Positions 7,080-25,187 of a DNA stretch of 64,000 bases are shown piece by piece. Source of the DNA: Pseudomonas sp. stari2. Lineage in GTDB: Bacteria; Pseudomonadota; Gammaproteobacteria; Pseudomonadales; Pseudomonadaceae. Below the pieces are notes generated by a model, which was given only the letters and a program-made list of their open reading frames with translations, was not told the origin of the DNA and searched no databases. How positions within the stretch are numbered: position 1 is the first letter of the stretch; the number at the start of each line of letters is the position of its first letter. The position numbers and the translations under genes are program-made. The stretch is from positions 3,343,501-3,407,500 of the forward strand of contig NZ_CP099760.1 of assembly GCF_040760005.1 (NCBI RefSeq), in the 5' to 3' direction.

Positions 7080-7799
7080 ATGCATATCAACCAAATGGAC
7101 ATGACGAATTCTGAGCTTGGCCTTTTTGCCAAGATCGTCTGGCGACTTCGAACGGGTGGGGCGGGGGATGAGGTTCGTCAGCAGGTGCTCGGTGATGTTA
7201 CCCAGCTGCTTCGATCTGACTTCGGAGCCTCTTACCTTTGGGATAGCTCAAGGGGACGATCCACGCGTTGCGCTGCAGTCAATATTGATGCGCGTATGCT
7301 GCGCCAATACGATGAGCAGATTCACACGCACGATACCGTAACGCCGGTGTTACGAGCCCAAGGGCAAGCTGCTTGTGTGGATGATGTCATTGGTCGGCGT
7401 ACATTGGAGCGCAGTGAGCATTACGCCGAGTTCCTCAGACCCTGTGGGATGCATCATGGAGTGAACGTTTTCTTCTTCAACCAGGGACGGGATGTGGGGG
7501 ATCTGCGCATATGGCGCAGTGCCGACCAACCTGCATTTGGTCCCAGGGAGCTCACTCTGCTGAACGCTCTCACGCCGTACTTCCAGCAAGCGCTCTCGGT
7601 TGAGCTGCCTTTAAACGGAGCCCTAAGTCCGCGAGAGCGTGCTGTTGTCGAGCATGTAGCAGCTGGGCGCAGTGACAAGGAGATCGCGCGCCTCATGTCC
7701 ATTGGCTTCACAACGGTACGTACCCATCTCAAAAACGCCATGGCCAAGACCCATTCGAGCAATCGAACCGAGCTCGCCATGCGAGTGGGAATGCACTGA
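7080..7799 (+). CDS. LuxR-family transcriptional regulator
   Basis: Protein of 239 residues with a C-terminal LuxR helix-turn-helix: LSPRERAVVEHVAAGRSDKEIAR followed by TTVRTHLKNAMAKT, about residues 180-232. The N-terminal 170 residues resemble a GAF-like sensor (SDFGASYLW...), not an acyl-homoserine-lactone domain, so it is not an obvious quorum sensor. It lies directly upstream of the secreted amidase and first porin, same strand, and is a candidate regulator for them. ATGs at codons 6 and 8 are alternative starts. Confidence 0.85.
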   Translation: MHINQMDMTNSELGLFAKIVWRLRTGGAGDEVRQQVLGDVTQLLRSDFGASYLWDSSRGRSTRCAAVNIDARMLRQYDEQIHTHDTVTPVLRAQGQAACVDDVIGRRTLERSEHYAEFLRPCGMHHGVNVFFFNQGRDVGDLRIWRSADQPAFGPRELTLLNALTPYFQQALSVELPLNGALSPRERAVVEHVAAGRSDKEIARLMSIGFTTVRTHLKNAMAKTHSSNRTELAMRVGMH

Positions 7800-7897
7800 A
7801 CCTCCTCATTTATGAGGATGTTTGCCGGATATTTTCCTGTGCGTAAATGAATCATCGAGACCTGCAGTGGGGATCGACTGATTCTCAAGGAATATCC

Positions 7898-9409
7898 GTG
7901 AAGACCAGACTCTCCTGTTTAGCGATTGGCCTTTTGGCAGCAAGCGTTGGCGCATCGGCGTCGAGCGTACCGCAAGACTTCTACCTGATGAGTGCTGAAC
8001 AGACGGCACAAGCCATCTGCGAAAAGAAGGTCTCCAGTGAATCGGTTGTCAGTTACTGGCTGGCCCGTATTGACGCGCATCCTGAGCTTAATGCCTTCAT
8101 TTCTCTAGACCCAAAGCGAGCCTTGGGCGAAGCGCGTGCTGCAGATGAACGCCTCGCCAAGGGGGAGCAGTGTCTTCCATTGGGCGGTGTCCCTATAGCA
8201 ATCAAGGACAACATTCAGGTCGTTGGTTTCACGAACACAGCAGGCACGCCAGCGCTCGCTAATTTCTTTCCGAAAGCCAATGCACCGATTATCGATAGGC
8301 TACAGGCTGCAGGCGCCATTGTGGTCGGCAAAACCAATATGCATGAGCTCGCGTTTGGCGCTACCGGCTACAACACTGCCTTTCATCTTCCACAGCAGGT
8401 CGGTGTGCGCAATGCCTTTGACAACTCTCGCATTGCCGGTGGTTCGTCATCAGGGAGTGCCGCCGCTCTGGGCGCTCGCTTGATTCCAATCGCTATGGGG
8501 ACAGATACAGGTGGCTCTAGCCGTGAGCCTTGCGCGCTAAATGGCTGTGTCGGTTTTCGCCCAACGGTGGGTCGATATAGCGGCGTAGGCATCACGCCTA
8601 TTTCGACGAGTCGCGATACGGCAGGCCCAATGGCCAATTCGGTTGGAGATGTCGTGTTACTGGATTCGATTCTTAGCGGTTCTTCACCTCTGAAGCCAAT
8701 TCCGGCCCACCAGATTCGACTGGGCATTCCAGATTTCTTCTGGGCAGATTTAGAACCGGAAGTCTTGACACAGGCCAGCGCCGCCGTAGAGAAGCTCCGC
8801 AGTTCAGGCGTTGAGGTCGTCTCAGTCAGTATGCCGGGTATCGGTCAATTGGCATCAGCTGTGGCAACGCCAGTCGCCATCATGGAAGCGCGCAAGGCCC
8901 TGACCGATTACCTGAAATCACAATCGACCGGAGTGTCATTCGAAACCCTGGTCGCCAACATTTCGAGTCCCGACGTTCAAGGTATTTTCTCGGCCATGGT
9001 GGTGCCGGGTAATGTCCCTGGGCCTGATGGAAAGATGATTCCTGGCGGCCCGGCTTATGCGCAAGCGATCAAGACGGGTGTCCCAGCCTTGCTGGCTCTC
9101 TATCAGAAGACCTTCGCGGACAACAAGCTCGACGCTCTTCTGTTCCCCACGGTTCCAGAGGTGGCAATCAAGACCGGACCTGACGCCGGAACGCCTCAAA
9201 AATTTGGTCGGATTATTCGAAACACCGACCCGAGCAGCAACGTAAGGATGCCGGGGCTCAGTCTTCCCGTAGGTGTTGGGAAAGAGTCCGGACTTCCTGT
9301 CGGTATGGAGATTGACGGATTGCCTGGAATGGACGACCAGCTCCTGGCAATCGGTCGCACGCTTGAGTCGATCTGGGGGCAGGGGCCACTTTCGCCCATA
9401 GCACGCTGA
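7898..9409 (+). CDS. Secreted amidase-signature hydrolase, candidate mandelamide hydrolase
   Basis: Amidase-signature enzyme of 503 residues hydrolysing an amide to acid plus ammonia. The Ser-cisSer-Lys triad is visible as Lys103 (AIKDN), Ser183 in GGSSSGSAAA and nucleophile Ser207 in GTDTGGSSR. GTG 7898 is chosen because AAGGA lies 7 bases upstream and it gives a clean signal peptide (KTR, then LAIGLLAASVGASA), implying periplasmic location. Mandelamide hydrolases belong to this family, and the mandelate genes in the same island make mandelamide the leading candidate substrate; that is inference. Arylacetonitrilases often release some amide, which this enzyme could recover. Confidence 0.82.
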   Translation: MKTRLSCLAIGLLAASVGASASSVPQDFYLMSAEQTAQAICEKKVSSESVVSYWLARIDAHPELNAFISLDPKRALGEARAADERLAKGEQCLPLGGVPIAIKDNIQVVGFTNTAGTPALANFFPKANAPIIDRLQAAGAIVVGKTNMHELAFGATGYNTAFHLPQQVGVRNAFDNSRIAGGSSSGSAAALGARLIPIAMGTDTGGSSREPCALNGCVGFRPTVGRYSGVGITPISTSRDTAGPMANSVGDVVLLDSILSGSSPLKPIPAHQIRLGIPDFFWADLEPEVLTQASAAVEKLRSSGVEVVSVSMPGIGQLASAVATPVAIMEARKALTDYLKSQSTGVSFETLVANISSPDVQGIFSAMVVPGNVPGPDGKMIPGGPAYAQAIKTGVPALLALYQKTFADNKLDALLFPTVPEVAIKTGPDAGTPQKFGRIIRNTDPSSNVRMPGLSLPVGVGKESGLPVGMEIDGLPGMDDQLLAIGRTLESIWGQGPLSPIAR

Positions 9410-9477
9410 TCGGTTGTTCTTATCCTGAGCGCAGTTGCCCTGGCTGCGCGAATAAAAACCTTTTTCGGATTAAATGA

Positions 9478-10779
9478 ATGAACGCGATCCCACTCGTCGC
9501 AGGTACTTCTGCGCGCCGATTTTGTGTAACCGCGATTGCGGCTTTGGGTAGTATGGCAAGTTCGGCATGGGCTGATTCGGCGCCTACAGACAGCAGCCCA
9601 CTCAAGGCGCACCTGATCGTTACCGATCTGATGCTGGAGAACCTTAATACTGGCCCTCGTCCCCACACATTCGCCAACGCGGGCGCTATTTTCGCCGGCG
9701 CCGATTTTGACATGTCCAAACTTTTGGGATTTGCAGGTGGCACGTTCCAGTTTGAATACACATTCTTCCCATGGATGCGCAATGAAGGTCAGCCCACCGC
9801 TGGCGCTTGGCAAGGCGCCACGGGTAGCGCTCTAGGCGGCGCACCTATGCATAACGACATCGACAAGGGGTATCTGTCGAAGTTTGAATATCGGCAAATG
9901 CTGTTGGACAACCATCTTGAGCTCGACGTTGGGCGTAGCAATGCTAAGCAGCATTTCTACATGATGAATTGCGAAAACTGGGTTACCTGCAACGACCCCA
10001 TCATTGAAAACACCACCGGAATACTGCCTTACCCATACGGAAGCTGGGGCGTTTACTCGCGTTACTCATTCGACAATGGTCAGTACCTGCATGCTGGTGC
10101 TTTCGAGTCTAATCCTGCCCATTACATCAAACGCACCAAGGGATGGGACTGGGATCCTGGTGACGCGAGCGGTATTACTTGGCTAGCAGGTGTTGGAGAT
10201 CAGAAAAGCTTTGCGCAGACGCCATTGGCTTATCACTACGAACTCAATGGCTTTTACAACAGTGCCGAACAGACTGATATCCTCGATGGCTCAACCCGTC
10301 GTGGTAGCAGCGGCTTGATTTTCCGCTTCATGCAGACGCTTTCTCGCGAGGGCGCTTCCGCTACAGGGGCTCCAGACAAAGCCTGGCAGACATTCGGTGC
10401 ATGGACATGGAGTGCTGATGATCTGCAACCTTTTGAGCATTTTGTCGAGTTGGGTGTAACCCGCATTGGCCCGTTCGGGCGTCCACAAGATTCTGTGAGC
10501 CTAAAAGCGAGTTACCTTCGTCTGGGTGATAAGCAGGTTCAGTACCAGCATGATCAGAGACTGCGCTCGACGGGAATTGATCAGGGGATGTCGAAAGGGG
10601 AATCCCGCGTTGAACTGAATATGGTTTGGCGGGCAACACCTTATCTGTCATTCCAACCAAGCGTGCAGTACGTTTTCAATCCAAGCAATTTTTACAACCC
10701 GCAAGCCGAGGTGAGTAGCAATGGTGCTGTCGTTGGACTGCAGATGGTTTATGACTTGGGATCGCAGATAGGACTTTGA
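9478..10779 (+). CDS. Outer-membrane porin, OprB-like carbohydrate porin
   Basis: Protein of 433 residues with an N-terminal signal peptide (about residues 1-32, ending near SSAWA) and the alternating aromatic strands of an outer-membrane beta-barrel, ending in a short hydrophobic strand (VYDLGSQIGL). Pieces such as FEYRQMLLDNHLELDVGRSNAKQ and GSWGVYSRYSF resemble the OprB sugar-porin family. It follows the amidase by 68 bases and is probably co-transcribed. It could admit the glucoside or an aromatic acid or amide; selectivity cannot be read from sequence. Confidence 0.75.
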   Translation: MNAIPLVAGTSARRFCVTAIAALGSMASSAWADSAPTDSSPLKAHLIVTDLMLENLNTGPRPHTFANAGAIFAGADFDMSKLLGFAGGTFQFEYTFFPWMRNEGQPTAGAWQGATGSALGGAPMHNDIDKGYLSKFEYRQMLLDNHLELDVGRSNAKQHFYMMNCENWVTCNDPIIENTTGILPYPYGSWGVYSRYSFDNGQYLHAGAFESNPAHYIKRTKGWDWDPGDASGITWLAGVGDQKSFAQTPLAYHYELNGFYNSAEQTDILDGSTRRGSSGLIFRFMQTLSREGASATGAPDKAWQTFGAWTWSADDLQPFEHFVELGVTRIGPFGRPQDSVSLKASYLRLGDKQVQYQHDQRLRSTGIDQGMSKGESRVELNMVWRATPYLSFQPSVQYVFNPSNFYNPQAEVSSNGAVVGLQMVYDLGSQIGL

Positions 10780-10838
10780 TGCCTGAAACGGAGAGAGTGA
10801 TCGGGAATCATGAACCCAATCTAGATGCAGTGGAATCC

Positions 10839-11753
10839 TCAGGCCGCATCTGACTCACCCAGAGCGGCCTGAATTTGTTCAAAGAACCACTTGAGTCCAG
10901 TTGACTGGATGCTCCGGGAGTGCCAGTGAAGGGTGACCTCGAATGCTGGAACTTCGAAGGGCAACTCCAGCGTCTTCAGCGGCTTGGTCAATGGCAACTC
11001 GCAAAAACTCTCTGCGATTTGGGACGGTAGGATGGCCAACAATTCAGTGCCTGGTATCACCTTGGGTAGAACTGAGAAGTGGGGAAGGCGTAGCTTTATC
11101 CGGCGCTTTGCTCCTAATTTCTGAAGCACATCTTCCGCCATTCCATGGCCCGATGTTCTCGTGACGAGAACGTGACGCTCCGCAAGAAATTGTTCCATGG
11201 ACATCTCAGAATGGATTCGGGGGTGGGCCGCATCTAGCAAGCAAACGTACCGTTCGCTAACCAACTTTTTCGACGCTAGGCCAGCGCTGGTAATTGCACG
11301 GCTGCAGATGGCTGCGTCGATGTAGCCATCGTTCAACCACATCCCCACTTGGTCAATTTCGAGAGGAATGATCTCCAGCTCGATATTGGGCGCCAAACTA
11401 TTCAGCCTCTCCATGAGCTTTGGCAGCAACGCCATCTCTCCCAAGTCGGAAAGGGCCAGTCGAAATTGTCGGTTTGAGTGGCCCGGTTCGAATTTTCGCG
11501 CTTCAGAGATCGATTCCTCAATGCAACGTGAGGCTTGCTTGAAGCCTACGTAAAGCTGAGCAGCAAGCCTCGTGGGCTGCATGCCTTGGCTAGTTCTTAC
11601 GAATAAAGGGTCGTCGAATTGTTCGCGAAGCTTACCTAGCGCATAGCTGATTGATGGCTGAGTCACGAATAGCCGTTCGGCGGTAACCGTCAGGCTCTGA
11701 GTCTCATACAGGGTGACGAATGTGGTAACGAGATTGAGATCGAAATTAGCCAT
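10839..11753 (-). CDS. LysR-family regulator divergent from mdlC
   Basis: LysR-type regulator of 304 residues. The N-terminal helix-turn-helix (MANFDLNLVTTFVTLYETQSLTVTAERLFVTQPSIS in part) resembles the NahR/NodD branch that senses aromatics; the rest is the periplasmic-binding-like effector domain. ATG 11753 fits the family's standard N-terminus. It is divergent from mdlC with 118 bases between them, the classical LysR arrangement, so it most likely controls the mdlC-MFS-aldehyde dehydrogenase operon, with mandelate or benzoylformate as possible inducers (inference). Confidence 0.88.
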   Translation of the reverse strand: MANFDLNLVTTFVTLYETQSLTVTAERLFVTQPSISYALGKLREQFDDPLFVRTSQGMQPTRLAAQLYVGFKQASRCIEESISEARKFEPGHSNRQFRLALSDLGEMALLPKLMERLNSLAPNIELEIIPLEIDQVGMWLNDGYIDAAICSRAITSAGLASKKLVSERYVCLLDAAHPRIHSEMSMEQFLAERHVLVTRTSGHGMAEDVLQKLGAKRRIKLRLPHFSVLPKVIPGTELLAILPSQIAESFCELPLTKPLKTLELPFEVPAFEVTLHWHSRSIQSTGLKWFFEQIQAALGESDAA

Positions 11754-11775
11754 TTGCAGACCTTTATCAAAATAA

Positions 11776-13461
<1,686 letters not shown>

Positions 13462-13469
13462 TGAGGGAC

Positions 13470-13489
13470 AGGGCCCCGCGATGGGCCCT
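13470..13489 (+). terminator. Hairpin between mdlC and the MFS gene
   Basis: Stem AGGGCCC / GGGCCCT with a CGCGAT loop, 8 bases after the mdlC stop. No long T-run follows, so it may be an attenuator or mRNA-processing hairpin rather than a full terminator. Confidence 0.4.
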
Positions 13490-13525
13490 TTGCAAATCTG
13501 AAATAACAAAAACAAGAGACGAATC

Positions 13526-14860
13526 ATGATCCCGAAAAATGCGATAGAGATTGCGAACACTGCGCCGTTGGGAAAATTTCACTATGGCCTGTTGTTCTGG
13601 TGCTCTTTCATCATGTTGTTTGATGGATACGACCTGGTCATATATGGCTCTGTAGTTCCACGGCTCATGGAGCAGTGGTCAATACCTCCTGTTCAGGCGG
13701 GCTGGATGGGAAGTGCTGCGCTGTTCGGAATGATGTTCGGTGCCGTTGCGATTGGCCCTTTGGCTGACCGCCTTGGTCGTCGCAAAGTCATTCTCGGGGC
13801 GATCACTCTGGCGAGCGTTGGAGCACTTGCCAACGCATTTGCATGGGATGCCTTGAGCTTCGCATCTCTGCGTTTCCTGACGGGTGTTGGGCTGGGTGGC
13901 GCGGTTCCCAACATCGTAGCGCTGATGAGCGATCTGTCGCCCACAACCCGGCGCAGCACACTCACGACCATCATGCTCAGCTTCTATTCCATTGGTGCGA
14001 TGGTTTCCGCGTTGGTGGCCATGCTGCTGATTCCGAAGTTCGGATGGGAGGCGACGTTCTTCATTGGCGGCCTGCCTTTGCTCTGCTTGCCATGGATGTA
14101 CCGTTACCTTCCCGAATCCCTGCCTTACCTGCTGGAGAAGGACAAGATTGCAGCCAGCCGGCTCATGACTCGCATTCTTCCTGGTATTGATACTTCCTCG
14201 GTTCGATTTGAGTCGCCCGTCCGGACATCCTCGTCCACACCTCTGTCACGTCTTTTCAAAGAGGGGCGAGGTGTCAGTACGGTATTCCTTTGGCTGGGAT
14301 TCGGCATGTGCCTGCTGATGGTCTATGGCCTCAATACCTGGCTGCCGAAAATCATGGTTGCTGGCGGCTATCCACTGGGCTCAAGCCTGATGTTCCTAGT
14401 GACATTGAATCTAGGCGCGACTGTTGGCGCGCTTGGTGGCGGCTGGCTGGCGGATCGCTGGGGGTGCAAACCCACCCTGATCCTGTTTTTCACGCTCGCG
14501 GTCGCTTCACTTTGCACCCTTGGTATCAAGCCCGGCCCTGTATTGCTCAACGTCATGTTGCTCATCGCTGGTGCTACGACCATCGGCACTCTCGCAGTTG
14601 TTCACGCCTTTGCCGCGCAACAATACCCGAGTGAAATCCGTTCGACTGCTGTGAGTTGGTGCTCAGCGGTAGGCCGATTCGGTGGGGTTGCTGGCCCTGC
14701 TCTTGGCGGGTTCATGCTGAGCCTGAACTTGCCGCTTCAATTGAATTTTATTTTCTGCGCGATACCTGGGCTGATCGCTATCTTCGCCATAGCTATGGTG
14801 AAACGGCGCGCACAGAATTCGAGTGAAAACCTGACCCAGCCTATAGATGCACATTCCTGA
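13526..14860 (+). CDS. MFS transporter, aromatic acid:H+ symporter (AAHS) type
   Basis: Twelve-helix major facilitator of 444 residues in the inner membrane. The [11 protein letters not shown] motif in helix 1 and [12 protein letters not shown] in the helix 2-3 loop are hallmarks of the aromatic acid/H+ symporter family (PcaK, BenK, MhpT). The second MFS motif [10 protein letters not shown] is present in the C-terminal half. It lies between benzoylformate decarboxylase and benzaldehyde dehydrogenase, so mandelate, benzoylformate or benzoate is the likely cargo (inference). Confidence 0.88.
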
Positions 14861-14892
14861 TATCCAAGTATCACCGTCTAAGGAGACTTCAC

Positions 14893-16371
14893 GTGAGCCA
14901 AAGTAACTGTATGCCTTACCAAGACATGTACTTGCTGCCAATTGCAGGGGAATGGCGGAAGGGCAGCACCGGGAACATTCTCAACGTTACTGATCCGTAC
15001 ACCGGCGAATCGCTCCTGGAAATCAGCCAGGCTGATCGCCAGGATTTGAACCAGGCTTACGTCTTTGCCGAGCAGGCGCAGGCTAGTTGGGCAGCTATGG
15101 CCCCAGGACAACGCTCGGCCATCATGCTCAAAGCCGTCCAAATCTTTGATGATCGTCGCGAAGAAATCATCGACTGGATCATTCGAGAGTCCGGCAGCAC
15201 GCGGATTAAAGCCCAGATCGAATGGGGAGCCGCTCGCGGGATTACTCAAGAGTCGGCCTCGTTCCCTGCTCGGGTACATGGTCGCATCCTCCCGTCCAAT
15301 GTACCGGGCAAGGAAAACCGAGTTTACCGTGAGCCGCTCGGTGTAGTGGGTGTGATCAGCCCGTGGAATTTCCCGTTCCACCTGACCCAGCGATCTGTCG
15401 CACCTGCATTGGCACTCGGCAACGCGATTGTTATCAAGCCGGCGAGCGATACACCAGTAACTGGGGGGCTTCTGGCAGCGAGAATTTTTGAAGAGGCCGG
15501 TGTACCGAAAGGCGTGATCAGCGTGCTGGTGGGCTCCGGTGCACAAATCGGTGATGCATTTGTGGAACATCACGTTCCTAAGTTCATCTCGTTCACCGGC
15601 TCGACGCCGGTAGGATTGAACATTGGGCGGATCGCAAGTGGCGGTAAGCATCTCAAGCATGTGGCGTTGGAGCTCGGAGGCAACAGCCCATTCGTGGTAC
15701 TCGCGGACGCAGATCTCGATCAGGCGGTTGCTGCTGCCGTCATGGGCAAGTTCTTGCACCAAGGCCAGATCTGTATGGCCATTAACCGAATTATTGTCGA
15801 AGACGCGCTGTATGACCGTTTTGTAGAGCTTTACGCCTCCAAAGTCAGGACACTGAAGGTGGGTAACCCAAGCGACCCTGACACCGTTGTTGGCCCGATC
15901 ATCAATCGCAAGCAACTTGAAGGCCTGCTGAGCAAGGTTTCCCGCGCGAAGGAAGAAGGAGCCAGGACAGTTGTAGAGGGGGAGGCGAAAGGAAATCTTC
16001 TGCCGCCACACGTCTTCGCTGATGTCACAGCAGATATGGAGATCGCTCGGGAGGAGATTTTCGGGCCACTCGTTGGGATTCAGCGTGCTCGGGATGAAGC
16101 TCACGCCTTGGATCTGGCGAATGACAGCGAGTTTGGTCTATCGAGTGCAGTGTTTACCAAGGATCTGGAGCGGGGTGCTCGTTTTGCTCGAAAGATCAAA
16201 GCAGGCATGACACACGTTAACGATATCCCTGTGAACGACGAAGCCCATGCGCCATTCGGCGGGGAAAAAAACTCTGGGCTTGGCCGATTCAATGGAGAGT
16301 GGGCAATCGAGGAGTTTACAACCGATCATTGGATCAGCGTCCAAATGACGCCTCGTATTTATCCATTCTAA
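14893..16371 (+). CDS. mdlD: Benzaldehyde dehydrogenase
   Basis: Aldehyde dehydrogenase of 492 residues expected to oxidise benzaldehyde, the MdlC product, to benzoate. Catalytic residues are Asn159 (SPWNFPF), Glu260 (ALELGGNSP) and Cys294 (GQICMAINR); the sequence belongs with vanillin/benzaldehyde dehydrogenases, with the [13 protein letters not shown] stretch. GTG 14893 is the start, 7 bases after AAGGAG. It is the third gene of the mdlC operon (32 bases after the MFS stop). The mdlD name is by role and position; orthology with the P. putida gene is not shown. Confidence 0.85.
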
Positions 16372-16437: not shown

Positions 16438-16566
16438 CCTGCTGTAGCCTTCACAACGAGCCTGTGTACATTGGTTGGCATGAAAGAACGGATGCGTCGA
16501 ATCTAACCAATACGAGCGGGGCGCTGTTTGACTGAGGGTTCCGTGCTCCCTCAAAAAGCGCTGCAG

Positions 16567-17541: not shown

Positions 17542-17945
17542 GGTGTGTGTCCTGCGCGAGCTGCTTGGCTATAGGCAAGCAAATAAGATGCCCCCCAGTC
17601 CCAGTCAGGTCAATCCGAGCAACTCAGGCATGAAGGATGGGAAGGTGAGTACATATTGTTTTTTTTGCAGCAGTTTCTCCGTCTGTCCACGCCCTTTTTA
17701 AGAGCACTTCAATTTGCTGTGCACGCAAATGGAAACGCATTTCACCTTAAGAAACTGAGGCAACTTCTGCAGGAAGTGGAGGGCAGCGATTCTCGCCGAT
17801 GCCCTGACAAACTCTCCGTCGCCGGAAGTATTGACTTGGCTTAGCGCAGCAACTCCAGCATTCGCTTAACCACCAAAAGCACAATAAGTAGGGCAAAAAA
17901 GATGCGAAGTCCGCTCTTTTTAGCTCGGGATACGGAGCAGCCAAT
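17542..17945. promoter_or_regulatory. Divergent region between AraC gene and porin/beta-glucosidase operon
   Basis: About 400 bases, AT-richer than the neighbours, with a T-run near 17660. It holds no convincing gene. It should contain the AraC promoter and the promoter of the OprB-GH3 operon. I could not pick out a certain operator. Confidence 0.4.
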
Positions 17946-19283
17946 TTGAAAAAGCGTATGGCAGCAGGCGGTTTAGCCCTCTTGGGGTCAGTCAGTATTC
18001 CCGCTTTGGCCGCTGAGCCTTTGGCAGCAAATTCACCTTGGCTCACAGGTGATTGGGGCGGGATAAGAAATGAACTTGGTGATGATGGCGTCACCCTGGG
18101 GCTATTTTACGTCAACGAGCTTGCCTCGAACGTAAGGGGTGGGTATGACCAAAGGACGGCGCTGGAGACCAGTGACCAGACAACAGCCCTATTTAACTAC
18201 GATCTGAGCAAAATGTTGGGGATCGACGGGGAGTTTAGCCTTGTCGTAACGAATAGAAACAATCATGAGTTACTGACTAACACGCGCGTTAACGATCCAC
18301 GCACAGGCTCACTTCCTAACTTGTCACAAGAGGTATGGGGCTTTGGGTCTGTCACCCGTCTCACTCGGCTGACCTACCAGCAAAACTTTTTCAACAAACG
18401 ATTGAGCGTGCGAGTTGGGAAAATGACCCCGACGGAAGAATACTTTCCGTCCACATGTGAGTTCCAGAGTTTGGTCAACTGCGGCACCGTGCCCGGTATC
18501 AGCAACATCTGGTACGGGTGGCCTATCAGCACATGGGCAGTTTCTACAAACTATCACATCACCCCGGATTGGTACTTGAAACTGGGGGTGTATCAACAGA
18601 ACCCTCTGACTACCACCAATGAGCGAGGTCTCTCGCTGAGTGACAAGGGGGCTGAGGGACAAATTTACCCCGTGTTGCTCGGTTGGCGCCCTCACTGGGG
18701 GGAGCGCAAGTATGCGGGTAACTATTTCATCGGAGCCTATTACAGCAATGTTGATGCGCCTGATGTTGCCGCTGGTGCTGTTGGGGGGATGCAGGCGTTG
18801 AATCCATCCGCGGGGTTCAAGCAGCGTCATGGAAAACGTGCCGCATGGGCGTTCTTTGAGCAGCAACTCACGGGGCCTGGGGGTGACAGCAAGCAAGGCT
18901 TGCGCGCTTTCGTTAACGCCGAAGTCAATGACAAAGAAACCTCTGTCCTCCACTACGGCTACGGCGCGGGACTGTATTACAACGGTCTATTCGCTAGCCG
19001 ACCAGATGACATGCTGGGCTTTGCCAGCACCGCCATCAAGATCAACAAAGATTGGACACGCAATCGTAATCTGACCAACCAATTGGCGGGCATCGACGAC
19101 TACGATGATCCTCGTTATCTCCCCTTGGGCGACACGGAAGTCTCGACCGAGCTGTTTTATCGCTATCAAGCAACCAAGTGGCTGTATCTCCAACCGAACA
19201 TCCAGCACTACCACGCCCCTGGTGGCGTGGACAAAGTGCCAGATGCGACGGTGCTTGGCCTGCGATTCAACATCAGTTTCTAG
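17946..19283 (+). CDS. Carbohydrate-selective porin OprB
   Basis: Outer-membrane sugar porin of 445 residues. It has a signal peptide (KKRMAAGGLALLGSVSIPALA, cleavage near residue 22) and OprB-family features: SPWLTGDWGGIRNELGDDGVTLGL near the start of the mature protein, GKMTPTEEYF, and the C-terminal barrel strand VLGLRFNISF. TTG 17946 is the start because GGAG lies 8 bases upstream and the positively charged signal-peptide head is then kept; ATG 17958 would lose it. It precedes a GH3 beta-glucosidase by 15 bases, so it probably admits the glucoside. Confidence 0.88.
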   Translation: MKKRMAAGGLALLGSVSIPALAAEPLAANSPWLTGDWGGIRNELGDDGVTLGLFYVNELASNVRGGYDQRTALETSDQTTALFNYDLSKMLGIDGEFSLVVTNRNNHELLTNTRVNDPRTGSLPNLSQEVWGFGSVTRLTRLTYQQNFFNKRLSVRVGKMTPTEEYFPSTCEFQSLVNCGTVPGISNIWYGWPISTWAVSTNYHITPDWYLKLGVYQQNPLTTTNERGLSLSDKGAEGQIYPVLLGWRPHWGERKYAGNYFIGAYYSNVDAPDVAAGAVGGMQALNPSAGFKQRHGKRAAWAFFEQQLTGPGGDSKQGLRAFVNAEVNDKETSVLHYGYGAGLYYNGLFASRPDDMLGFASTAIKINKDWTRNRNLTNQLAGIDDYDDPRYLPLGDTEVSTELFYRYQATKWLYLQPNIQHYHAPGGVDKVPDATVLGLRFNISF

Positions 19284-19298
19284 GTAGGGCACCCCTTA

Positions 19299-21524
19299 AT
19301 GAAAAAGCTTCTTCCCTCAAGTTCTATCGCTTTCTTGGCGCTTTTTATAACCACCCCCCACGTACTAGCGGCATCCCACGCTTGGTTGGACTCAACCACA
19401 TCGCCCGACGAGCGAGCAATGCTTCTGCAAAAAGACCTGACTCTTGAGGAGCAAATTCGTCGAGTTCATGGCGAAATGGCCATGCCTATTCTTGGGTTTG
19501 CAGTTCCGCAAGGGGCTATTGGATCAGCAGGGTTTGTGCCTGCGGATGTCGCGAGAGGTATTCCTGCACTTCAAATCACTGATGCAAGCCTCGGAGTTGC
19601 CAACCCCGCCAACGTACGGCCAGGTGATGGAGGGACGCCGTTGCCGTCAGGACTCAGCAGCGCCGCAAGTTGGAATCCTGAAGTCGCCTACGACGGCGGC
19701 AAGATGATTGGCCAAGAGGCGTGGAGCAAGGGCTTCAACGTCATGCTTGCGGGCGGAGTGAACCTCGCGCGCGATCCCCGCAACGGTAGAAACTTTGAGT
19801 ATTTCGGTGAGGATCCATTGCTGGCCGGGACTATGGCTGGTGAAAATATCAAAGGCATTCAAAGTCAGCATGTGCTGTCGACGATCAAGCATTTTGCGAT
19901 GAATGATCAGGAGACCGCGCGGATGGGCATGAGCGCTGTGATCGACGACCGGGCCATGAGCGAGAGTGATTTGCTCGCGTTCCAGATCGCCATTGAGCGT
20001 GGCCAACCCGGCGCGGTCATGTGCGGATACAACAGAGTGAATGGTACGCACGCGTGCGACAACGCTGAGTTACTTCAACGAGTGTTGAAAGATCGCTGGG
20101 GCTATCGCGGGTTTGTCATGTCTGACTGGGGTTCGGTTCACGGGGTCGAGGCAGCCATGCATGGTGTCGATATCGAGATGGGGACACAGTTGGACAAGTG
20201 GTTGTTTGGCGATGTTTTCTTCGATAGACCCTTGCTTGCCAAAGCAGAGCAAGATCCAGCCTATCAGGCTCGCTTAGCTGAGATGAGCCAGCGAATTCTG
20301 CGCTCGATGTTTGATGTCGGCCTATTCGAGCACCCTCCAGTCAAAACACCCATTGACTATGCGGCGAGTAAAGCTGTCGCACAGCGAGCCGCTGAAGAAG
20401 GGATGGTGCTGCTGCGCAATGAGAATAGCGTGCTGCCGTTGAATAGTTCAATCAAGAAGATTTTGGTGGTGGGTGGTAACGCAGACAAGGGGGTGCTTTC
20501 CGGAGGCGGTTCTTCCCAAGTTGTGGAACCTGAAGGTGTAGGACTGGCTATTCATACCGGAGGGGAAGGGCAGTTCTCCACATTGCGTGAAATGGTATGG
20601 CACAGAAGCTCGCCACTTAAGGCTCTGAAAGCGGAACTCCCAGACGCCACGATCACCTTCAACGACGGTCGTCATCCTGGAGAGGCTGCCGCGCTGGCGA
20701 AGAACGCTGATCTCGTCATCGTGTTCGCGACGCAATGGATGATGGAAAGCTACGACACATACGATCTGGAACTGCCTGATGGTCAGAATGGTTTGATCGA
20801 CGCGGTTGCCTCGGCGAACGGTAAAACGATTGTTGTTTTGGAAACCGGAGGCGCCGTCAGTATGCCCTGGCTGAGCAAAACGGCGGCAGTAATGCAAGCT
20901 TGGTACCCCGGTGCCGGCGGCGGTGAAGCCATTGCTCGTACGCTGACCGGAAAGGTTAATCCTTCAGGACGTCTCCCGATCACGTTCCCTGCTGATCTGA
21001 AACAGCTACCTCGTCCCGAGGTGCCTGGGTTTGGTGGTGCTGAAAACGCCAGGATCGACGTCGACTACAACATCGAAGGCGCCGATGTCGGCTACAAATG
21101 GTTTGCGCGAAAGAAAACCAACCCATTGTTCCCGTTCGGTTATGGCCTTTCGTACACGCAATTCAAGTACGACGACTTGAAGGTTGAGCAGATGGCTCCA
21201 CTCGTTGTTTCTTTCACAGTGACCAACACCGGCAAACTCACCGGGAAGGACGTACCTCAACTCTACCTGACGGGCATGCCCGGCAGGGCGCAGCACCGCT
21301 TGTTGGGTTGGAGCAAGATCGAGCTCCAGCCAGGGGAAACACGTTCTGTAACCCTAAAAGTGGATACGCGGTTGCTCGCAGACTTTGACGCCAAAGCGCA
21401 AGGCTGGACGGTGGCTCGGGGGCCGTATGCATTGGGCCTAGGTCATAGTGCGACCGAGTTGGTGGCACAACAGCACGTCGCCTTGCAGAAGCAAAGCTTT
21501 TCAGACGTTGCCGTCAGCCACTAA
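19299..21524 (+). CDS. Secreted GH3 beta-glucosidase
   Basis: Glycoside hydrolase family 3 enzyme of 741 residues with a signal peptide (residues 1 to about 24, ending HVLA), so periplasmic or exported. The catalytic nucleophile is Asp276 in GFVMSDWGSVHG; other GH3 marks are GRNFEYFGEDP, STIKHFAMNDQE (about 194-205) and the second alpha/beta domain with a C-terminal fibronectin-III-like domain. It probably removes glucose from a beta-glucoside aglycone. The adjacent OprB porin and nearby nitrilase and mandelate genes point to amygdalin, prunasin or a related mandelonitrile glucoside; this is inference, and GH3 enzymes can have broad specificity. Confidence 0.9.
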   Translation: MKKLLPSSSIAFLALFITTPHVLAASHAWLDSTTSPDERAMLLQKDLTLEEQIRRVHGEMAMPILGFAVPQGAIGSAGFVPADVARGIPALQITDASLGVANPANVRPGDGGTPLPSGLSSAASWNPEVAYDGGKMIGQEAWSKGFNVMLAGGVNLARDPRNGRNFEYFGEDPLLAGTMAGENIKGIQSQHVLSTIKHFAMNDQETARMGMSAVIDDRAMSESDLLAFQIAIERGQPGAVMCGYNRVNGTHACDNAELLQRVLKDRWGYRGFVMSDWGSVHGVEAAMHGVDIEMGTQLDKWLFGDVFFDRPLLAKAEQDPAYQARLAEMSQRILRSMFDVGLFEHPPVKTPIDYAASKAVAQRAAEEGMVLLRNENSVLPLNSSIKKILVVGGNADKGVLSGGGSSQVVEPEGVGLAIHTGGEGQFSTLREMVWHRSSPLKALKAELPDATITFNDGRHPGEAAALAKNADLVIVFATQWMMESYDTYDLELPDGQNGLIDAVASANGKTIVVLETGGAVSMPWLSKTAAVMQAWYPGAGGGEAIARTLTGKVNPSGRLPITFPADLKQLPRPEVPGFGGAENARIDVDYNIEGADVGYKWFARKKTNPLFPFGYGLSYTQFKYDDLKVEQMAPLVVSFTVTNTGKLTGKDVPQLYLTGMPGRAQHRLLGWSKIELQPGETRSVTLKVDTRLLADFDAKAQGWTVARGPYALGLGHSATELVAQQHVALQKQSFSDVAVSH

Positions 21525-21551
21525 GGCGCTTTCTCGTGGAGCGAGGGCGCC
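21525..21551 (+). terminator. Hairpin after the beta-glucosidase gene
   Basis: Two-part stem GGCGC...CTCG / CGAG...GCGCC starting at the base after the stop codon. No T-run follows, so it may stabilise the mRNA end rather than terminate. Confidence 0.35.
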
Positions 21552-21668
21552 AACACCCTAGCCCCAGGGAAGCTCAAGCAAGTCTGACAAGATCTTCAGC
21601 ACATTTTTCCTGCTCGTTTTCATCAAAGATGCAGGGGACGGCTGCGTGCCATATTTTTTGAGGTTTCC

Positions 21669-22676
21669 ATGTCTTCTTCAACTTCGTATCGAGTCGCGGT
21701 GGTACAAGCCGCACCTGTTTTTATGGATCGTGCGGCGACCGTCGATAAATGCATTCGGCTCATTGCTGATGCGGCGTCTAGCGGGGCCCGGTTGATTGCA
21801 TTTCCCGAGAACTTCATCCCGGGTTATCCGTGGTTTTTCTGGCTCGGTTCTCCCGCATGGGCAATGCAATACATGCTCAGCTACCACGAACAGGCTTTGG
21901 TGATCGATAGCCCCGACTATCGGCGCCTGGAGCAAGCGGCTGCGGAGCACCAGATTTTCGTATGCGTTGGTTTTACTGAGAAGTCTAATGGGAGCTTGTA
22001 TATGGCTCAGGCTTTTATCGATGACCAAGGGCGTACCCTGTCGACGCGTCGCAAGCTCAAGCCGACTGTCGCTGAGCGCATGGTGTTTGGGGAGGGCGAC
22101 GGTAGTGACATCCAAGTTCATGAAACCAACCTTGGACGGCTTGGTGGACTCTGCTGCTGGGAGCATATCCAGCCCCTAACGAAGTTCGCCATGTACAGCA
22201 AGCACGAGCAGATTCACGTGGCTGCATGGCCAGGTTTTTCCCTCTATACGGACGTCACCCCAGCAATTGGTGGCGAGGTTAATAACGCCGTAAGTCGTAC
22301 CTACGCCGTCGAAGGCCAGTGTTTTGTCCTCGCTCCCTGTGGGATGGTTTCCGAAGACGTGGTCGAGTTCCTTTGCCAAAACGATGATACCCGCAGCCTG
22401 CTTAAGGTGGGTGGCGGATACGCACGAATTTATGGCCCAGACGGCGCGGACTTGGCGACTCCCTTGGCGCCGGATCGAGAAGGTCTGCTCTACGCGGATG
22501 TGAATCTCGATGCCGTCACACTGGCCAAGGTTGCGGCAGATCCGGTTGGCCACTATTCCCGTAGTGACGTGACACGTCTGCTGTTCAATGCTGAGTCTCG
22601 CCGGCCCGTAACCGAAGACGCATCAGCCCGTGCGGACGACGAAGTCGTTCTCGTTGGCGACCTTGAGTCCAATTAA
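21669..22676 (+). CDS. Arylacetonitrilase (candidate mandelonitrile nitrilase)
   Basis: Nitrilase of 335 residues converting a nitrile to the acid plus ammonia. The Glu-Lys-Cys triad is Glu47 (AFPENFIPGYP), Lys129 (RRKLKPT) and Cys163 (GGLCCWEHIQP). The overall sequence, with GYPWFFWLGSP, EGDGSD and HYSRSDV, resembles bacterial arylacetonitrilases such as the P. fluorescens EBC191 enzyme. The residue after the catalytic Cys is Trp rather than the Ala of EBC191 (from memory). GAGG lies 6 bases before ATG. With mdlB nearby, mandelonitrile is the most likely substrate; phenylacetonitrile is an alternative. Confidence 0.9.
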   Translation: MSSSTSYRVAVVQAAPVFMDRAATVDKCIRLIADAASSGARLIAFPENFIPGYPWFFWLGSPAWAMQYMLSYHEQALVIDSPDYRRLEQAAAEHQIFVCVGFTEKSNGSLYMAQAFIDDQGRTLSTRRKLKPTVAERMVFGEGDGSDIQVHETNLGRLGGLCCWEHIQPLTKFAMYSKHEQIHVAAWPGFSLYTDVTPAIGGEVNNAVSRTYAVEGQCFVLAPCGMVSEDVVEFLCQNDDTRSLLKVGGGYARIYGPDGADLATPLAPDREGLLYADVNLDAVTLAKVAADPVGHYSRSDVTRLLFNAESRRPVTEDASARADDEVVLVGDLESN

Positions 22677-22705
22677 TCGATTCCACGCTCCCTTGGGTAT
22701 ATGAC

Positions 22706-23953
22706 ATGCAACAAAAATCGCAGGGTGATTCGGCTTACGAGTGGAAAATGGTTTGGTTGCTTGCAGTGCTGTTCGGCATTGTGGGCCTTGATCGGCTGAT
22801 AGTTGTATACCTGTTCCCGATTTTGATTCCAGAGTTGGGATTGAGTAATACCCAGGCCGGAGCCATTGCTTCCGTACTGGCGTTGACGTGGGCGCTATCA
22901 ACCTATTTTCTTGGTGGTCTGAGTGATCGCCACGGACGGAAAAAGGTTCTGGTCTACTCTGGCATCTTCTTCTCACTGATGACCTGGATGACCGGGGTTG
23001 CAAAAAGCTTCACCGGCATGCTGGTTGTCCGAGGGCTGCTTGGCGTGGGCGAGGGCGGTGTATTCAGCGCAAGCGTTGCAACGCTTGCTGAGATCTCGAC
23101 GCCTAAACGGCGTGGGCTCAACATGGGGATTCACCAAGCGTTCTTTCCGTTACTCGGTATCGGCCTGGGCCCAATCATCGCGACTCAGTTGAGCCTGTAC
23201 ATGCCGTGGGAGTGGGTATTTTTCTTACTGGGGATCCCTGGACTGATCCTGACGGTCATGTTGGCCAAGCTGATGCGAGAGCCAAGCAAGAGTCTTCCTG
23301 GAGCCGAAGCTGTCGAAAGCACACCTCTCAGGAGTGTTTTCGGATTTCGCAATATCTGGGTGACGACAATTATTGGCTCGCTGTTCCAAACCGGTTTGTT
23401 CGTGTTTTCGACCTTTGTAGCTCTATACCTCACACAGGTGGTCGGTCTGTCGTTGAGCACAACGGGGCTGATCGTGTCGGGCTGGGGATTTGGTGGTTTC
23501 ATCGGGATGATCGCTGTGCCTGCGCTATCAGATCGCTGGGGCCGTAAATCCGTGCTAGTGGCTTGCGCCACGATGTACGGCGTTTTAATGCTTGCGTTTG
23601 CTCTCAGTCATGCAGGCCCGGTAGTGATGTTTTCTATTCTTTTCGCTGCCGGCATCTTCGGCTTTGGAATCGCTCCATTGTTCTTGGCCGTTATTCCGAG
23701 CGAGTCGGTACCTTCCAACATGACGGGTTCCGCAGTCGGTGTGCCAACGGGCGTAAGCGAGTTGATCGGCGGCGTTTTAATGCCGGTTATCGCCGGTGGT
23801 CTGGCTGACCTATACGGTTTGTCTGTTCCGATGATGGTGGTGGGCGCGGTCTCGCTGGCAGCAGCTTTCACAGGCCTGTTTCTGGTCGAAACTGCTCCCG
23901 GTTTTGCTGGACGTCAGCAAACTTCGGTAGGTCTGCCAGCATCATCCGAATAA
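22706..23953 (+). CDS. MFS transporter downstream of the nitrilase
   Basis: Twelve-helix major facilitator of 415 residues, inner membrane. The loop motif GGLSDRHGRKKV and its repeat PALSDRWGRKSV are clear, and GLDRLIVVYLFPILIPELG is at helix 1. It starts 29 bases after the nitrilase stop and probably shares its transcript. Possible cargo is mandelonitrile-derived acid such as mandelate, or an organic anion; sequence does not decide. No strong ribosome site is visible before ATG 22706. Confidence 0.83.
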   Translation: MQQKSQGDSAYEWKMVWLLAVLFGIVGLDRLIVVYLFPILIPELGLSNTQAGAIASVLALTWALSTYFLGGLSDRHGRKKVLVYSGIFFSLMTWMTGVAKSFTGMLVVRGLLGVGEGGVFSASVATLAEISTPKRRGLNMGIHQAFFPLLGIGLGPIIATQLSLYMPWEWVFFLLGIPGLILTVMLAKLMREPSKSLPGAEAVESTPLRSVFGFRNIWVTTIIGSLFQTGLFVFSTFVALYLTQVVGLSLSTTGLIVSGWGFGGFIGMIAVPALSDRWGRKSVLVACATMYGVLMLAFALSHAGPVVMFSILFAAGIFGFGIAPLFLAVIPSESVPSNMTGSAVGVPTGVSELIGGVLMPVIAGGLADLYGLSVPMMVVGAVSLAAAFTGLFLVETAPGFAGRQQTSVGLPASSE

Positions 23954-23980
23954 ATTCTATCTATTCGAGCAGGGAATAAT

Positions 23981-23996
23981 ATCGATTTGATCAATC
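23981..23996. promoter_or_regulatory. 16-bp motif upstream of mdlB shared with the mdlC promoter
   Basis: ATCGATTTGATCAATC, matching 14 of 16 bases of the element upstream of mdlC. It is enclosed by GAGCAGGG (23967-23974) and CCCTGCTC (24000-24007), so it might instead be the loop of an RNA hairpin ending the MFS transcript; a T-rich stretch follows at 24020-24036. Confidence 0.4.
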
Positions 23997-24056
23997 AGGC
24001 CCTGCTCAATAGAGTGGGGTTTTTCTTTTGGATTTTTGTACTGCCTTGAGGGCTCC

Positions 24057-25187
24057 ATGAACTCAGCATTTAGCGTAGAAGGGTTTCGCTCCCTGGCACG
24101 GCGGCGCCTTCCCCAGATGGTCTTCGACTACCTTGACGGTGGTGCGGATGATGAAAAATGTCTACAGCGGAATCGGGATGCTTTCGATCAATGGGAGCTG
24201 GTCCCAAGGCGTTTGGTTGATGTCGCCCATCGAGACCTCAGTGTTGAGGTGTTCGGCACGTCTCAGCCATTGCCGCTTATGGTTGCGCCAATGGGGCTCA
24301 ACGGTGTTTTCTGGCCGAGGGGCGATATCGCATTGGCAAGGGCTGCGGCGAAAGCGGGTATCCCATTTATGCTTTCTACAGCTGCCAATGCATCAATCGA
24401 GGAAGTTGCCGACAAAGCCGGCGGTGATCTTTGGTTCCAGCTGTACGTTGTACATCCTTCCCTTGCTGATCAACTTGTCTCACGTGCCCTGGCTGCTGGA
24501 TATAAAACCTTAGTGCTCACAACCGATGTCGCCGTGAACGGAAAGCGCGAGCGTGATCTGCGCAGTGGATTTGGCCTTCCATTCAAGTACACACCCAAGG
24601 TGATGTTGGATGGAGCGTTGCACCCTCGGTGGTCGCTCAGCTTGCTTGCTGGGGGAATACCTCAGATGGCGAACTTTGCCAATCAGGATGCCGACAATGT
24701 GGAACTCCAGGCCGCGCTGCTTTCCCGAAAAATGGACGCAAGCTTTGACTGGGCTTCTCTTGAGCGATTACGAGCCATGTGGCCGCATCGCCTTATTGTT
24801 AAAGGGATTCTTCACCCCGAAGATGCGACCCGCTGTATGGCCCTGGGGGCCGATGGTGTGGTGCTTTCTAATCACGGTGGACGCCAGCTAGACTCGAGCT
24901 GTTCACCTATGCTGTCTCTGCAGGAGATTTCTGCCATTCACCCAGGAAAGGTATTAGTGGATAGCGGTTTCAGAAGAGGATCGGATGTGGTCAAAGCCTT
25001 GGCGCTCGGCGCCGACGCAGTGCTCATCGGTCGACCTCTCCTTTACGGATTGGCCGTAGCCGGCGAGGAGGGCGCCAGCGAAGTCCTTAGCATCATTCGA
25101 GACGAGTTGGATCGTACTCTCGCGAATATGGGGTGTGCCTCGGTTAGAGATTTGTCACCGGATTACCTGAAAAAACAACAGGGCTAA
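24057..25187 (+). CDS. mdlB: (S)-mandelate dehydrogenase
   Basis: FMN-dependent alpha-hydroxyacid oxidase-family dehydrogenase of 376 residues that oxidises (S)-mandelate to benzoylformate and passes electrons to the membrane quinone pool. Active-site residues expected for this family are present: Tyr25 (FDYLDGGADDE), Tyr130 (WFQLYVVH), Asp158 and Arg165 (TTDVAVNGKRERDL), Lys249 (LIVKG), and the base His273 with Arg276 in LSNHGGRQLD. The loop around residues 180-215 (MLDGALHPRWSLSLL) corresponds to the membrane-binding segment of P. putida MdlB. ATG 24057 has GAGG 5 bases upstream. Confidence 0.94.
   Translation: MNSAFSVEGFRSLARRRLPQMVFDYLDGGADDEKCLQRNRDAFDQWELVPRRLVDVAHRDLSVEVFGTSQPLPLMVAPMGLNGVFWPRGDIALARAAAKAGIPFMLSTAANASIEEVADKAGGDLWFQLYVVHPSLADQLVSRALAAGYKTLVLTTDVAVNGKRERDLRSGFGLPFKYTPKVMLDGALHPRWSLSLLAGGIPQMANFANQDADNVELQAALLSRKMDASFDWASLERLRAMWPHRLIVKGILHPEDATRCMALGADGVVLSNHGGRQLDSSCSPMLSLQEISAIHPGKVLVDSGFRRGSDVVKALALGADAVLIGRPLLYGLAVAGEEGASEVLSIIRDELDRTLANMGCASVRDLSPDYLKKQQG

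What the first reader, a model, noticed from the sequence alone, without database searches (positions are those of the whole stretch)
7080..25187. Candidate complete catabolic island for a cyanogenic glucoside (amygdalin/prunasin type)
One 18-kb block encodes every step from a mandelonitrile glucoside to benzoate: OprB porin plus secreted GH3 beta-glucosidase, arylacetonitrilase, amidase, (S)-mandelate dehydrogenase, benzoylformate decarboxylase and benzaldehyde dehydrogenase, with transporters and regulators. Mandelate (mdl) operons are known, and nitrilases and GH3 enzymes are known singly. I do not recall a described bacterial locus that joins them into one glucoside-to-benzoate pathway. 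Such plants as Prunus release these glucosides, which fits a plant-associated Pseudomonas.
Basis: partly seen in the sequence, partly recalled or inferred. Interest (0 to 1): 0.9.

Follow-up and report, generated by a model that had tools for sequence, protein, structure and literature searches.

The report
Bacterial genes for eating cyanide-bearing glucosides
A Pseudomonas carries one block of genes that looks built to strip the sugar from cyanide-releasing plant glucosides and use the rest without freeing much cyanide; part of this was already known, and the sugar-stripping part is the new piece.

Summary
In detail: 13 intact genes at 7080-25187 encode two OprB porins, GH3 glucosidase, nitrilase, amidase, mandelate dehydrogenase, benzoylformate decarboxylase, aldehyde dehydrogenase, two MFS transporters and three regulators. 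The reading is partly right. Nitrilase + mandelate genes + amidase are in print for P. fluorescens EBC191 (Kiziak 2005, seen only as reported in PMC8955678). New is the OprB-GH3 pair, and it is truly linked: all 13 genes recur in strain DM22 and, reordered, in another Pseudomonadaceae genus (G502); a Klebsiella-like genome (G772) has araC | oprB-GH3-transporter-nitrilase without mdl genes nearby. These GH3s form one fully supported clade. Ten paper searches listed no report of the joined locus. Against "complete": this genome has no mandelate racemase, BenA, CatA or CatB hit, but has PobA and PcaHG. The nitrilase is predicted (R)-selective, MdlB's solved relatives are (S)-specific; DM22, T1-3-2 and CSV86 carry a PanE-type reductase (candidate (R)-mandelate dehydrogenase) that the window lacks. 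Best reading: periplasmic deglucosylation of mandelonitrile-type cyanogenic glucosides, then cyanide-sparing nitrilase and mandelate steps; ring substituent and stereochemistry unsettled. New variant of a known kind.

The parts
7080..7799 (+). LuxR-type regulator
   Evidence: Pfam GerE; beside amidase and oprB1 in DM22, T1-3-2, P. fuscovaginae and G502
7847..9409 (+). Amidase-signature enzyme, probably periplasmic (hydrophobic N-terminus read by eye), likely for hydroxyamides or glucosyl amides
   Evidence: NCBIfam PRK07488 indoleacetamide hydrolase 565 bits vs cut-off 532; Pfam Amidase
9478..10779 (+). OprB-type carbohydrate porin 1
   Evidence: Pfam OprB 176 bits
10839..11753 (-). LysR-type regulator, divergent from mdlC
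11872..13461 (+). mdlC, benzoylformate decarboxylase
   Evidence: NCBIfam 821 bits vs cut-off 493; PDB 6qsi 918 bits
13526..14860 (+). Aromatic acid:H+ symporter (MFS)
   Evidence: TIGR00895 340 bits, below its cut-off 418.55
14893..16371 (+). Aromatic aldehyde dehydrogenase (benzaldehyde / 4-hydroxybenzaldehyde type)
   Evidence: PDB 9jw2 856 bits
16567..17541 (-). AraC-type regulator (FeaR-like), divergent from oprB2
   Evidence: PRK09685 FeaR 179 bits vs cut-off 199; a 40% relative in the same divergent position in G772
17542..17945 (.). araC-oprB2 control region; palindrome ACTTC-N5-GAAGT at 17763
   Evidence: palindrome also upstream of oprB2 in DM22; a degenerate form in G502 was seen by eye and missed by the pattern
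17946..19283 (+). OprB-type carbohydrate porin 2, TTG start
   Evidence: Pfam OprB 275 bits; ends 15 nt before GH3
19299..21524 (+). GH3 beta-glucosidase with N-terminal signal sequence (read by eye)
   Evidence: Pfam Glyco_hydro_3, Glyco_hydro_3_C, Fn3-like; alignment to 7ms2 keeps the SDW aspartate and the Glu of MESYD
21669..22676 (+). Nitrilase of the arylacetonitrilase type, no signal sequence by eye
   Evidence: Pfam CN_hydrolase; 176 of 306 aligned residues identical to NitA 6zby; E47, K129, C163 kept
22706..23953 (+). MFS transporter 2
   Evidence: Pfam MFS_1; next to nitrilase also in DM22, T1-3-2, P. fuscovaginae and G502, one gene away in CSV86
24057..25187 (+). mdlB, (S)-mandelate dehydrogenase type with the loop region kept
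   Evidence: PDB 6bfg (S)-mandelate dehydrogenase 509 bits, one alignment over residues 10-380

Best explanation
The block is a catabolic route for beta-glucosides of mandelonitrile-type cyanohydrins (prunasin, amygdalin, sambunigrin, or 4-hydroxy forms such as dhurrin and taxiphyllin). OprB2 lets the glucoside into the periplasm; the exported GH3 takes off glucose; the freed hydroxynitrile crosses the inner membrane (by itself or by MFS2); the cytoplasmic nitrilase turns it into the hydroxyacid plus ammonia before it can fall apart to aldehyde and HCN; MdlB, MdlC and the aldehyde dehydrogenase carry it to the aromatic acid, and the same dehydrogenase also takes aldehyde from any cyanohydrin that did fall apart. 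OprB1 and the exported amidase would take in and hydrolyse amide forms, either mandelamide or the glucosyl amides that plants hold. Shown here: gene content, intact frames, co-conservation in three arrangements, catalytic residues of GH3 and nitrilase by alignment. Inferred: substrates, cellular places, direction of transport, regulation.
For: Families and solved relatives of every enzyme. oprB2-gh3-nit-mfs2-mdlB run in one direction with gaps 15, 144, 29 and 103 nt. The same 13 genes in DM22 in the same order (luxR turned round, two genes added); all 13 in G502 in a different order within 18.5 kb (lysR only its first quarter, at the edge of the fetched stretch); araC | oprB2-gh3-AEC transporter-nitrilase in G772. 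GH3 clade of 15 rows, 100/100, stem 0.53. GH3, nitrilase and OprB2 hits share a longest-contig length in R. planticola (5229639); GH3 and nitrilase share 121776; OprB2 and nitrilase 302476; GH3 and OprB2 30156. In DM22, T1-3-2 and CSV86 the locus also holds an OprD porin and a PanE-type reductase, a family that includes D-mandelate dehydrogenases (recalled), which would take (R)-mandelate. Precedents: EBC191 nit/mandelate locus (PMC8955678, passages); a Bifidobacterium GH3 that turns amygdalin into prunasin (PMC9897726, passages); prunasin amide and acid occur in Prunus buds (PMC5437698, passages).
Against: No activity is shown for any of these proteins. The GH3 substrate cannot be told from a 357-bit match. 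T1-3-2 and CSV86 keep nitrilase and mdl genes, and P. fuscovaginae nitrilase with part of mdlB, without this GH3, so the GH3 arm is optional. Stereochemistry does not close in the window strain: Trp after the catalytic Cys and the kept Trp188 equivalent predict (R)-mandelate (by EBC191 variants, PMC6930498 passages), MdlB's solved relatives are (S)-mandelate dehydrogenases, no racemase was found, and the PanE-type gene of its relatives has no match in the window (elsewhere in the genome not tested). Benzoate would be a dead end here by ben/cat.
Confidence: 0.66

Rival explanations
1. Narrower form of the best reading: in this strain the true substrate bears a 4-hydroxyl (dhurrin, taxiphyllin), and the end product is 4-hydroxybenzoate, which PobA and PcaHG then open.
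For: Aldehyde dehydrogenase nearest 4-hydroxybenzaldehyde dehydrogenase 9jw2. G000 has PobA (680 bits, over cut-off 538.7) and PcaHG but no BenA (best 97.6 bits vs 780.95, and that gene is glycine betaine monooxygenase), no CatA-type PF00775 hit and no CatB among its 3 MR_MLE proteins. The window also lacks the OprD porin and PanE-type reductase that sit in the loci of DM22, T1-3-2 and CSV86, the first two of which have BenA over the cut-off and the third a BenA match in pieces. (S)-4-hydroxymandelonitrile of dhurrin would suit an (S)-specific MdlB (configuration recalled).
Against: The other 6 carriers searched each have a CatA-like PF00775 hit of 226-249 bits and a stronger BenA relative than the window's, 2 of 7 genomes over the BenA cut-off, so the locus as a kind is not tied to 4-hydroxy substrates. 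PobA is over cut-off in all 7 genomes searched, so it does not discriminate. The nitrilase is predicted (R)-selective.
Confidence: 0.3
2. Two unrelated neighbours: a mandelonitrile/mandelate locus of EBC191 type, with a general beta-glucoside scavenging pair (OprB-GH3) that happens to sit inside it.
For: GH3/OprB2 missing in T1-3-2, P. fuscovaginae and CSV86; GH3s are common and often promiscuous (recalled).
Against: The pair sits near a nitrilase in 4 of 4 readable genomes, on both sides of a rearrangement and across families; the GH3s form their own clade; in G772 porin, GH3, transporter and nitrilase lie in one run without mdl genes nearby.
Confidence: 0.14
3. The route is mainly for non-cyanogenic relatives: benzyl glucoside, glucosyl amides and acids, or mandelate itself, with the nitrilase as a side activity.
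For: Prunasin amide, acid, benzyl glucosides and benzoyl glucose occur in almond and cherry buds (PMC5437698 passages); amidase with porin 1 travels without GH3 in T1-3-2 and P. fuscovaginae.
Against: Nitrilase is kept in every locus compared, also in G772 with no mdl genes in the stretch read; but the loci were found through nitrilase or GH3, which favours this.
Confidence: 0.1
4. Auxin production: nitrilase plus indoleacetamide-hydrolase-type amidase make indole-3-acetate from plant indole-3-acetonitrile or its amide.
For: Amidase passes the NCBIfam indoleacetamide hydrolase cut-off; EBC191 nitrilase also takes indole-3-acetonitrile (PMC8955678); G772 has an auxin-efflux-carrier-family protein between GH3 and nitrilase (115 bits, below that model's cut-off of 246).
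Against: mdlB, mdlC and aldehyde dehydrogenase have no place in it; AEC proteins carry many small acids (recalled).
Confidence: 0.05

Closest known systems
Nitrilase/mandelate locus of Pseudomonas fluorescens EBC191 (Kiziak et al. 2005; not held, known to me through passages of PMC8955678)
   Same: Nitrilase gene beside mandelate pathway genes and an indoleacetamide-hydrolase-type amidase; growth on mandelate; proposed use of plant mandelonitrile
   Different: No GH3 or porin is mentioned in the passages read (the original was not seen); NitA of 6zby, which I recall is the EBC191 enzyme, is 57.5% identical to the window's over 306 residues and falls outside its clade
mdlCBA(D) mandelate operon of P. 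putida (recalled)
   Same: mdlC and mdlB homologues at high score
   Different: No mdlA racemase in the locus, and none among the genome's MR_MLE proteins; genes split over two runs; aldehyde dehydrogenase nearest a 4-hydroxybenzaldehyde dehydrogenase
Amygdalin-degrading GH3 operon of bee Bifidobacterium (PMC9897726, passages)
   Same: GH3 plus MFS transporter, more abundant in amygdalin-grown cells
   Different: Its text has 0 occurrences of 'nitrilase'; no nitrile or ring use described in the passages read
Aldoxime-nitrile pathway operons (oxd + nitrilase; PMC8955678)
   Same: Bacterial use of plant nitriles
   Different: No aldoxime dehydratase among the families found for the genes of this block

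Membership tests
Mandelate (mdl) pathway | Benzoylformate decarboxylase | tested here: met
   821 bits vs cut-off 493; 6qsi
Mandelate (mdl) pathway | (S)-mandelate dehydrogenase, FMN family | tested here: met
   6bfg over residues 10-380; enantioselectivity itself not testable
Mandelate (mdl) pathway | Mandelate racemase | tested here: not met
   3 MR_MLE proteins in the genome: galactonate dehydratase, a relative below that cut-off, glucarate dehydratase
Mandelate (mdl) pathway | Benzaldehyde dehydrogenase | tested here: inconclusive
   Nearest solved relative is a 4-hydroxybenzaldehyde dehydrogenase
Arylacetonitrilase | Glu-Lys-Cys triad | tested here: met
   E47, K129, C163 aligned with NitA; triad recalled
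Arylacetonitrilase | Activity on mandelonitrile | not testable with these tools
   assay needed
GH3 beta-glucosidase | Nucleophile Asp (SDW) and acid/base Glu | tested here: met
   alignment to 7ms2; residue roles recalled
GH3 beta-glucosidase | Hydrolysis of a cyanogenic glucoside | not testable with these tools
   assay needed
EBC191-type nitrilase locus | Nitrilase with mandelate genes and amidase in one locus | tested here: met
EBC191-type nitrilase locus | Nitrilase of the same clade | tested here: not met
   NitA row lies outside the 21-row group of the window's nitrilase, though on a long branch, and its being EBC191's is recalled
Complete glucoside-to-central-metabolism route via benzoate | BenA, CatA, CatB in the genome | tested here: not met
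   CoA-linked benzoate routes not tested
Complete route via 4-hydroxybenzoate | PobA and PcaHG in the genome | tested here: met

The most novel reading that the evidence does not exclude
There is a travelling bacterial module, araC | oprB-GH3-(inner-membrane transporter)-nitrilase, that disarms plant cyanogenic glucosides by turning the freed cyanohydrin into acid and ammonia before cyanide forms. It occurs in Pseudomonas and in Klebsiella/Raoultella-type enterobacteria, and in Pseudomonas it has been fused with a mandelate pathway (in some strains with a branch for each mandelate enantiomer) and an amide arm into a full carbon-and-nitrogen route from the glucoside to the aromatic acid.
Probability: 0.5. 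Interest if true: 0.75.

Novelty: new variant of a known kind. Interest (0 to 1): 0.62.

Why it matters
Cyanogenic glucosides are among the commonest plant defences. A dedicated bacterial locus that eats them without releasing the cyanide would explain how some plant-associated bacteria live on cyanogenic hosts, would give a marker to look for in microbiomes of Prunus, sorghum or cassava, and would offer an enzyme set for detoxifying food and feed. It also turns an old suggestion about mandelonitrile-using pseudomonads into a whole pathway that can be tested gene by gene.

Tried and rejected
Searching plasmids for GH3 and nitrilase gave only relatives under 60% identity (47 and 29 records): no plasmid carrier of this GH3 clade found. 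The genus of the Klebsiella-labelled MAG (3 genomes) had no GH3 match. Shared operator motif: GCAAGATCGG occurs twice between nit and araC in G502 and in P. fuscovaginae, but in the window's 6001-26000 only with a mismatch; the palindrome ACTTC-N5-GAAGT precedes oprB2 in the window and DM22 in strict form; I make no regulon claim. The promoter/terminator scan found no more sites than shuffles (3 vs mean 11.0; 17 vs mean 20.0). A repeat search of 6000-26400 showed nothing that I could tie to the block. No structure prediction was run: it would not settle the glucoside. Reading the block as auxin synthesis was considered and put low because of the mdl genes. A fetch of contig C45 of G400 (L112) proved to be a different contig from L003's, gave no match and was not used.


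Full report
What is there. The 18-kb block holds 13 intact genes: luxR, amidase, oprB1 (all +); lysR (-); mdlC, an aromatic-acid MFS, an aldehyde dehydrogenase (+); araC (-); oprB2, GH3, nitrilase, a second MFS, mdlB (+). Benzoylformate decarboxylase and the amidase pass their NCBIfam cut-offs; the rest are placed by Pfam and by solved relatives. G+C is 54.2% against 59.7% in 1-6423 and 56.9% in 26346-64000. Read by eye, GH3 and the amidase have signal-like N-termini and the nitrilase has none; no predictor was run.

Is the GH3/porin pair part of it? (a) Strain DM22 (P. frederiksbergensis, L001/L109/L110) has all 13 genes in the same order at 75-96% identity, with luxR turned round and two genes added between the aldehyde dehydrogenase and araC, and is followed by the same tcuC as the window at 98%. 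(b) G502, from another genus of the family and near-identical in GH3 to a protein named P. oryzihabitans, has all 13 within 18.5 kb at 50-85% identity, but reordered: lysR (only its first quarter in the stretch) | mdlC-MFS-ALDH | mdlB-MFS2-nit reversed | araC | luxR-amidase-oprB1 | oprB2-GH3. Of the 13 genomes of that genus, only G502 has a nitrilase match at E<=1e-60. (c) G772, in the family of Erwinia mallotivora's genome and near-identical to Klebsiella-named proteins, has araC divergent from oprB2-GH3-AEC transporter-nitrilase, with no mdl match in the 33 kb read. Whether mdl genes lie elsewhere in G772 was not tested.

Against linkage. Strain T1-3-2 (L002/L111) has 11 of the 13 genes and lacks exactly oprB2 and GH3; P. 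fuscovaginae (L003) has luxR, amidase, oprB1, araC, nit, MFS2 and a third of mdlB at a contig end; P. bharatica CSV86 (L004) has nit, mdlB, mdlC, ALDH, both MFSs, lysR and a 36% araC, but no match to GH3, OprB2, amidase, luxR or oprB1. GH3 search of their genomes gave no match at E<=1e-60 in G400 and G401, and three of 39-51% outside the locus in G399. Of the 126 nitrilase relatives in genome contigs, 80 were kept; in 76 of these 80 loci no other gene of the block has a relative of 50% identity or more, and a GH3 relative occurs in 2 (L001 at 86%, L033 at 36%). So most nitrilases of this family sit elsewhere, and the GH3 arm can be absent.

Trees. GH3 (46 of the 120 listed homologues, 4 locus copies, 5 of the 8 non-own Pseudomonas places; the three left out, L095-L097, each have an in-frame TGA): the window's GH3 lies in a 15-row clade, support 100/100, stem 0.53, that holds DM22, G502, P. 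oryzihabitans, K. variicola/G772 and Raoultella. Context is known directly for 4 of the 15 (window, DM22, G502, G772), and in 4 of 4 oprB2 is next to it and a nitrilase near. Nitrilase (55 of 120 listed, 7 loci, NitA): window, DM22, T1-3-2, P. fuscovaginae and G502 lie in a 14-row clade (100/99) next to the enterobacterial ones (joint 21 rows, 94/91, just short of the strict mark). CSV86's nitrilase lies in a different clade (with P. juntendi and P. asplenii) although its MdlC is 85% identical to the window's, so mdl genes have met different nitrilases more than once. NitA also falls elsewhere, on a long branch. L060 (Burkholderia ambifaria) and L079 (Sphingomonadales MAG) have nitrilase near weaker MdlC-like genes (42% and 38%).

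How far does the route go? In the window's genome: BenA none (best 97.6 bits, a glycine betaine monooxygenase); intradiol dioxygenases only PcaH, PcaG and one weak 31.7-bit hit; MR_MLE proteins three, none reaching a racemase or muconate cycloisomerase model's cut-off; PobA present. CoA-linked benzoate routes were not tested. The other six carriers searched (G398-G401, G502, G772) each have a CatA-like PF00775 hit of 226-249 bits, judged by score and frame and not named by a family search, and a BenA relative of 497-892 bits, the one of G401 in pieces; two of the seven genomes are over the BenA cut-off. So in this strain benzoate may be excreted, or the real ring carries a 4-hydroxyl; the aldehyde dehydrogenase's nearest solved relative is a 4-hydroxybenzaldehyde enzyme.

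Stereochemistry. Prunasin and amygdalin are (2R) (table in PMC5437698). EBC191 nitrilase variants with Trp in place of Ala165 give mostly (R)-mandelate and little amide (PMC6930498, passages); the window's nitrilase has Trp there, as do 60 of 63 rows, and keeps the Trp188 equivalent. MdlB's solved relatives are (S)-mandelate dehydrogenases. Relatives may have solved this: between aldehyde dehydrogenase and araC, DM22 and T1-3-2 carry an OprD-family porin and a PanE/ApbA-family reductase (83% and 66% identical between them), and CSV86 carries both in its locus (76% and 55%). PanE-type proteins include D-mandelate dehydrogenases (recalled; the solved relatives are all labelled 2-dehydropantoate or ketopantoate reductase), so this gene is a candidate (R)-mandelate dehydrogenase. 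It has no match in the window, in the G502 and G772 stretches or in L003. So the window and G502 arrangement leaves (R)-mandelate without a known enzyme unless cyanohydrin racemises first, MdlB is less strict, another enzyme elsewhere serves, or the substrate is (S).

Prior knowledge. PMC8955678 (passages and the second half of the reference list) reports from Kiziak 2005 that EBC191 has mandelate genes and an indoleacetamide hydrolase gene by nit, grows on mandelate, and is thought to use mandelonitrile from plants. PMC9897726 (passages) shows a Bifidobacterium GH3 making prunasin from amygdalin. PMC11311503 (passages), on bacterial breakdown of cyanogenic glycosides among other things, has 0 occurrences of 'nitrilase'. 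Ten paper searches listed no paper whose title or abstract start joins porin, GH3, nitrilase and mandelate genes; I opened only PMC8955678, PMC6930498, PMC9897726, PMC11311503 and PMC5437698, in passages (and part of one reference list), and most subscription journals are not held.

Verdict. New variant of a known kind, interest 0.62.

Noticed in passing
window 45329-46503: Cytochrome bd-type oxidase subunit I appears split over two minus-strand frames (256 aa, matched by Pfam from profile position 127 on, and 140 aa, read by eye) that meet near 46.09 kb; a bd oxidase would bear on cyanide tolerance, but this copy looks interrupted.
   Followed up: partly
window 46522-48372: A second TPP enzyme (NCBIfam PRK08273, 1099 bits) without a stated substrate lies 33 kb from mdlC.
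   Followed up: no
window 26346-30290: tcuCBA tricarballylate genes flank the block on the right; tcuC follows mdlB in DM22 too, at 98% identity, so the right-hand neighbour is shared.
   Followed up: partly
window 4882-6423: A second aldehyde dehydrogenase faces the block from the left; a 55% relative lies near the CSV86 locus (L004:3588-4994).
   Followed up: no
L004: P. bharatica CSV86 has mdl genes 75-85% identical to the window's but a nitrilase from another clade, a sign of repeated assembly of nitrilase with mandelate genes.
   Followed up: partly
L135:14185-15207: An AEC-family (auxin efflux carrier) transporter stands between GH3 and nitrilase in G772.
   Followed up: partly
L002:12396-13481: In T1-3-2 a DDE-type transposase gene lies between the second MFS gene (matched in two pieces) and mdlB.
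   Followed up: no
L001:2575-4773: OprD porin and PanE-type reductase genes sit between aldehyde dehydrogenase and araC in DM22, with relatives in the T1-3-2 and CSV86 loci; the window lacks them.
   Followed up: partly
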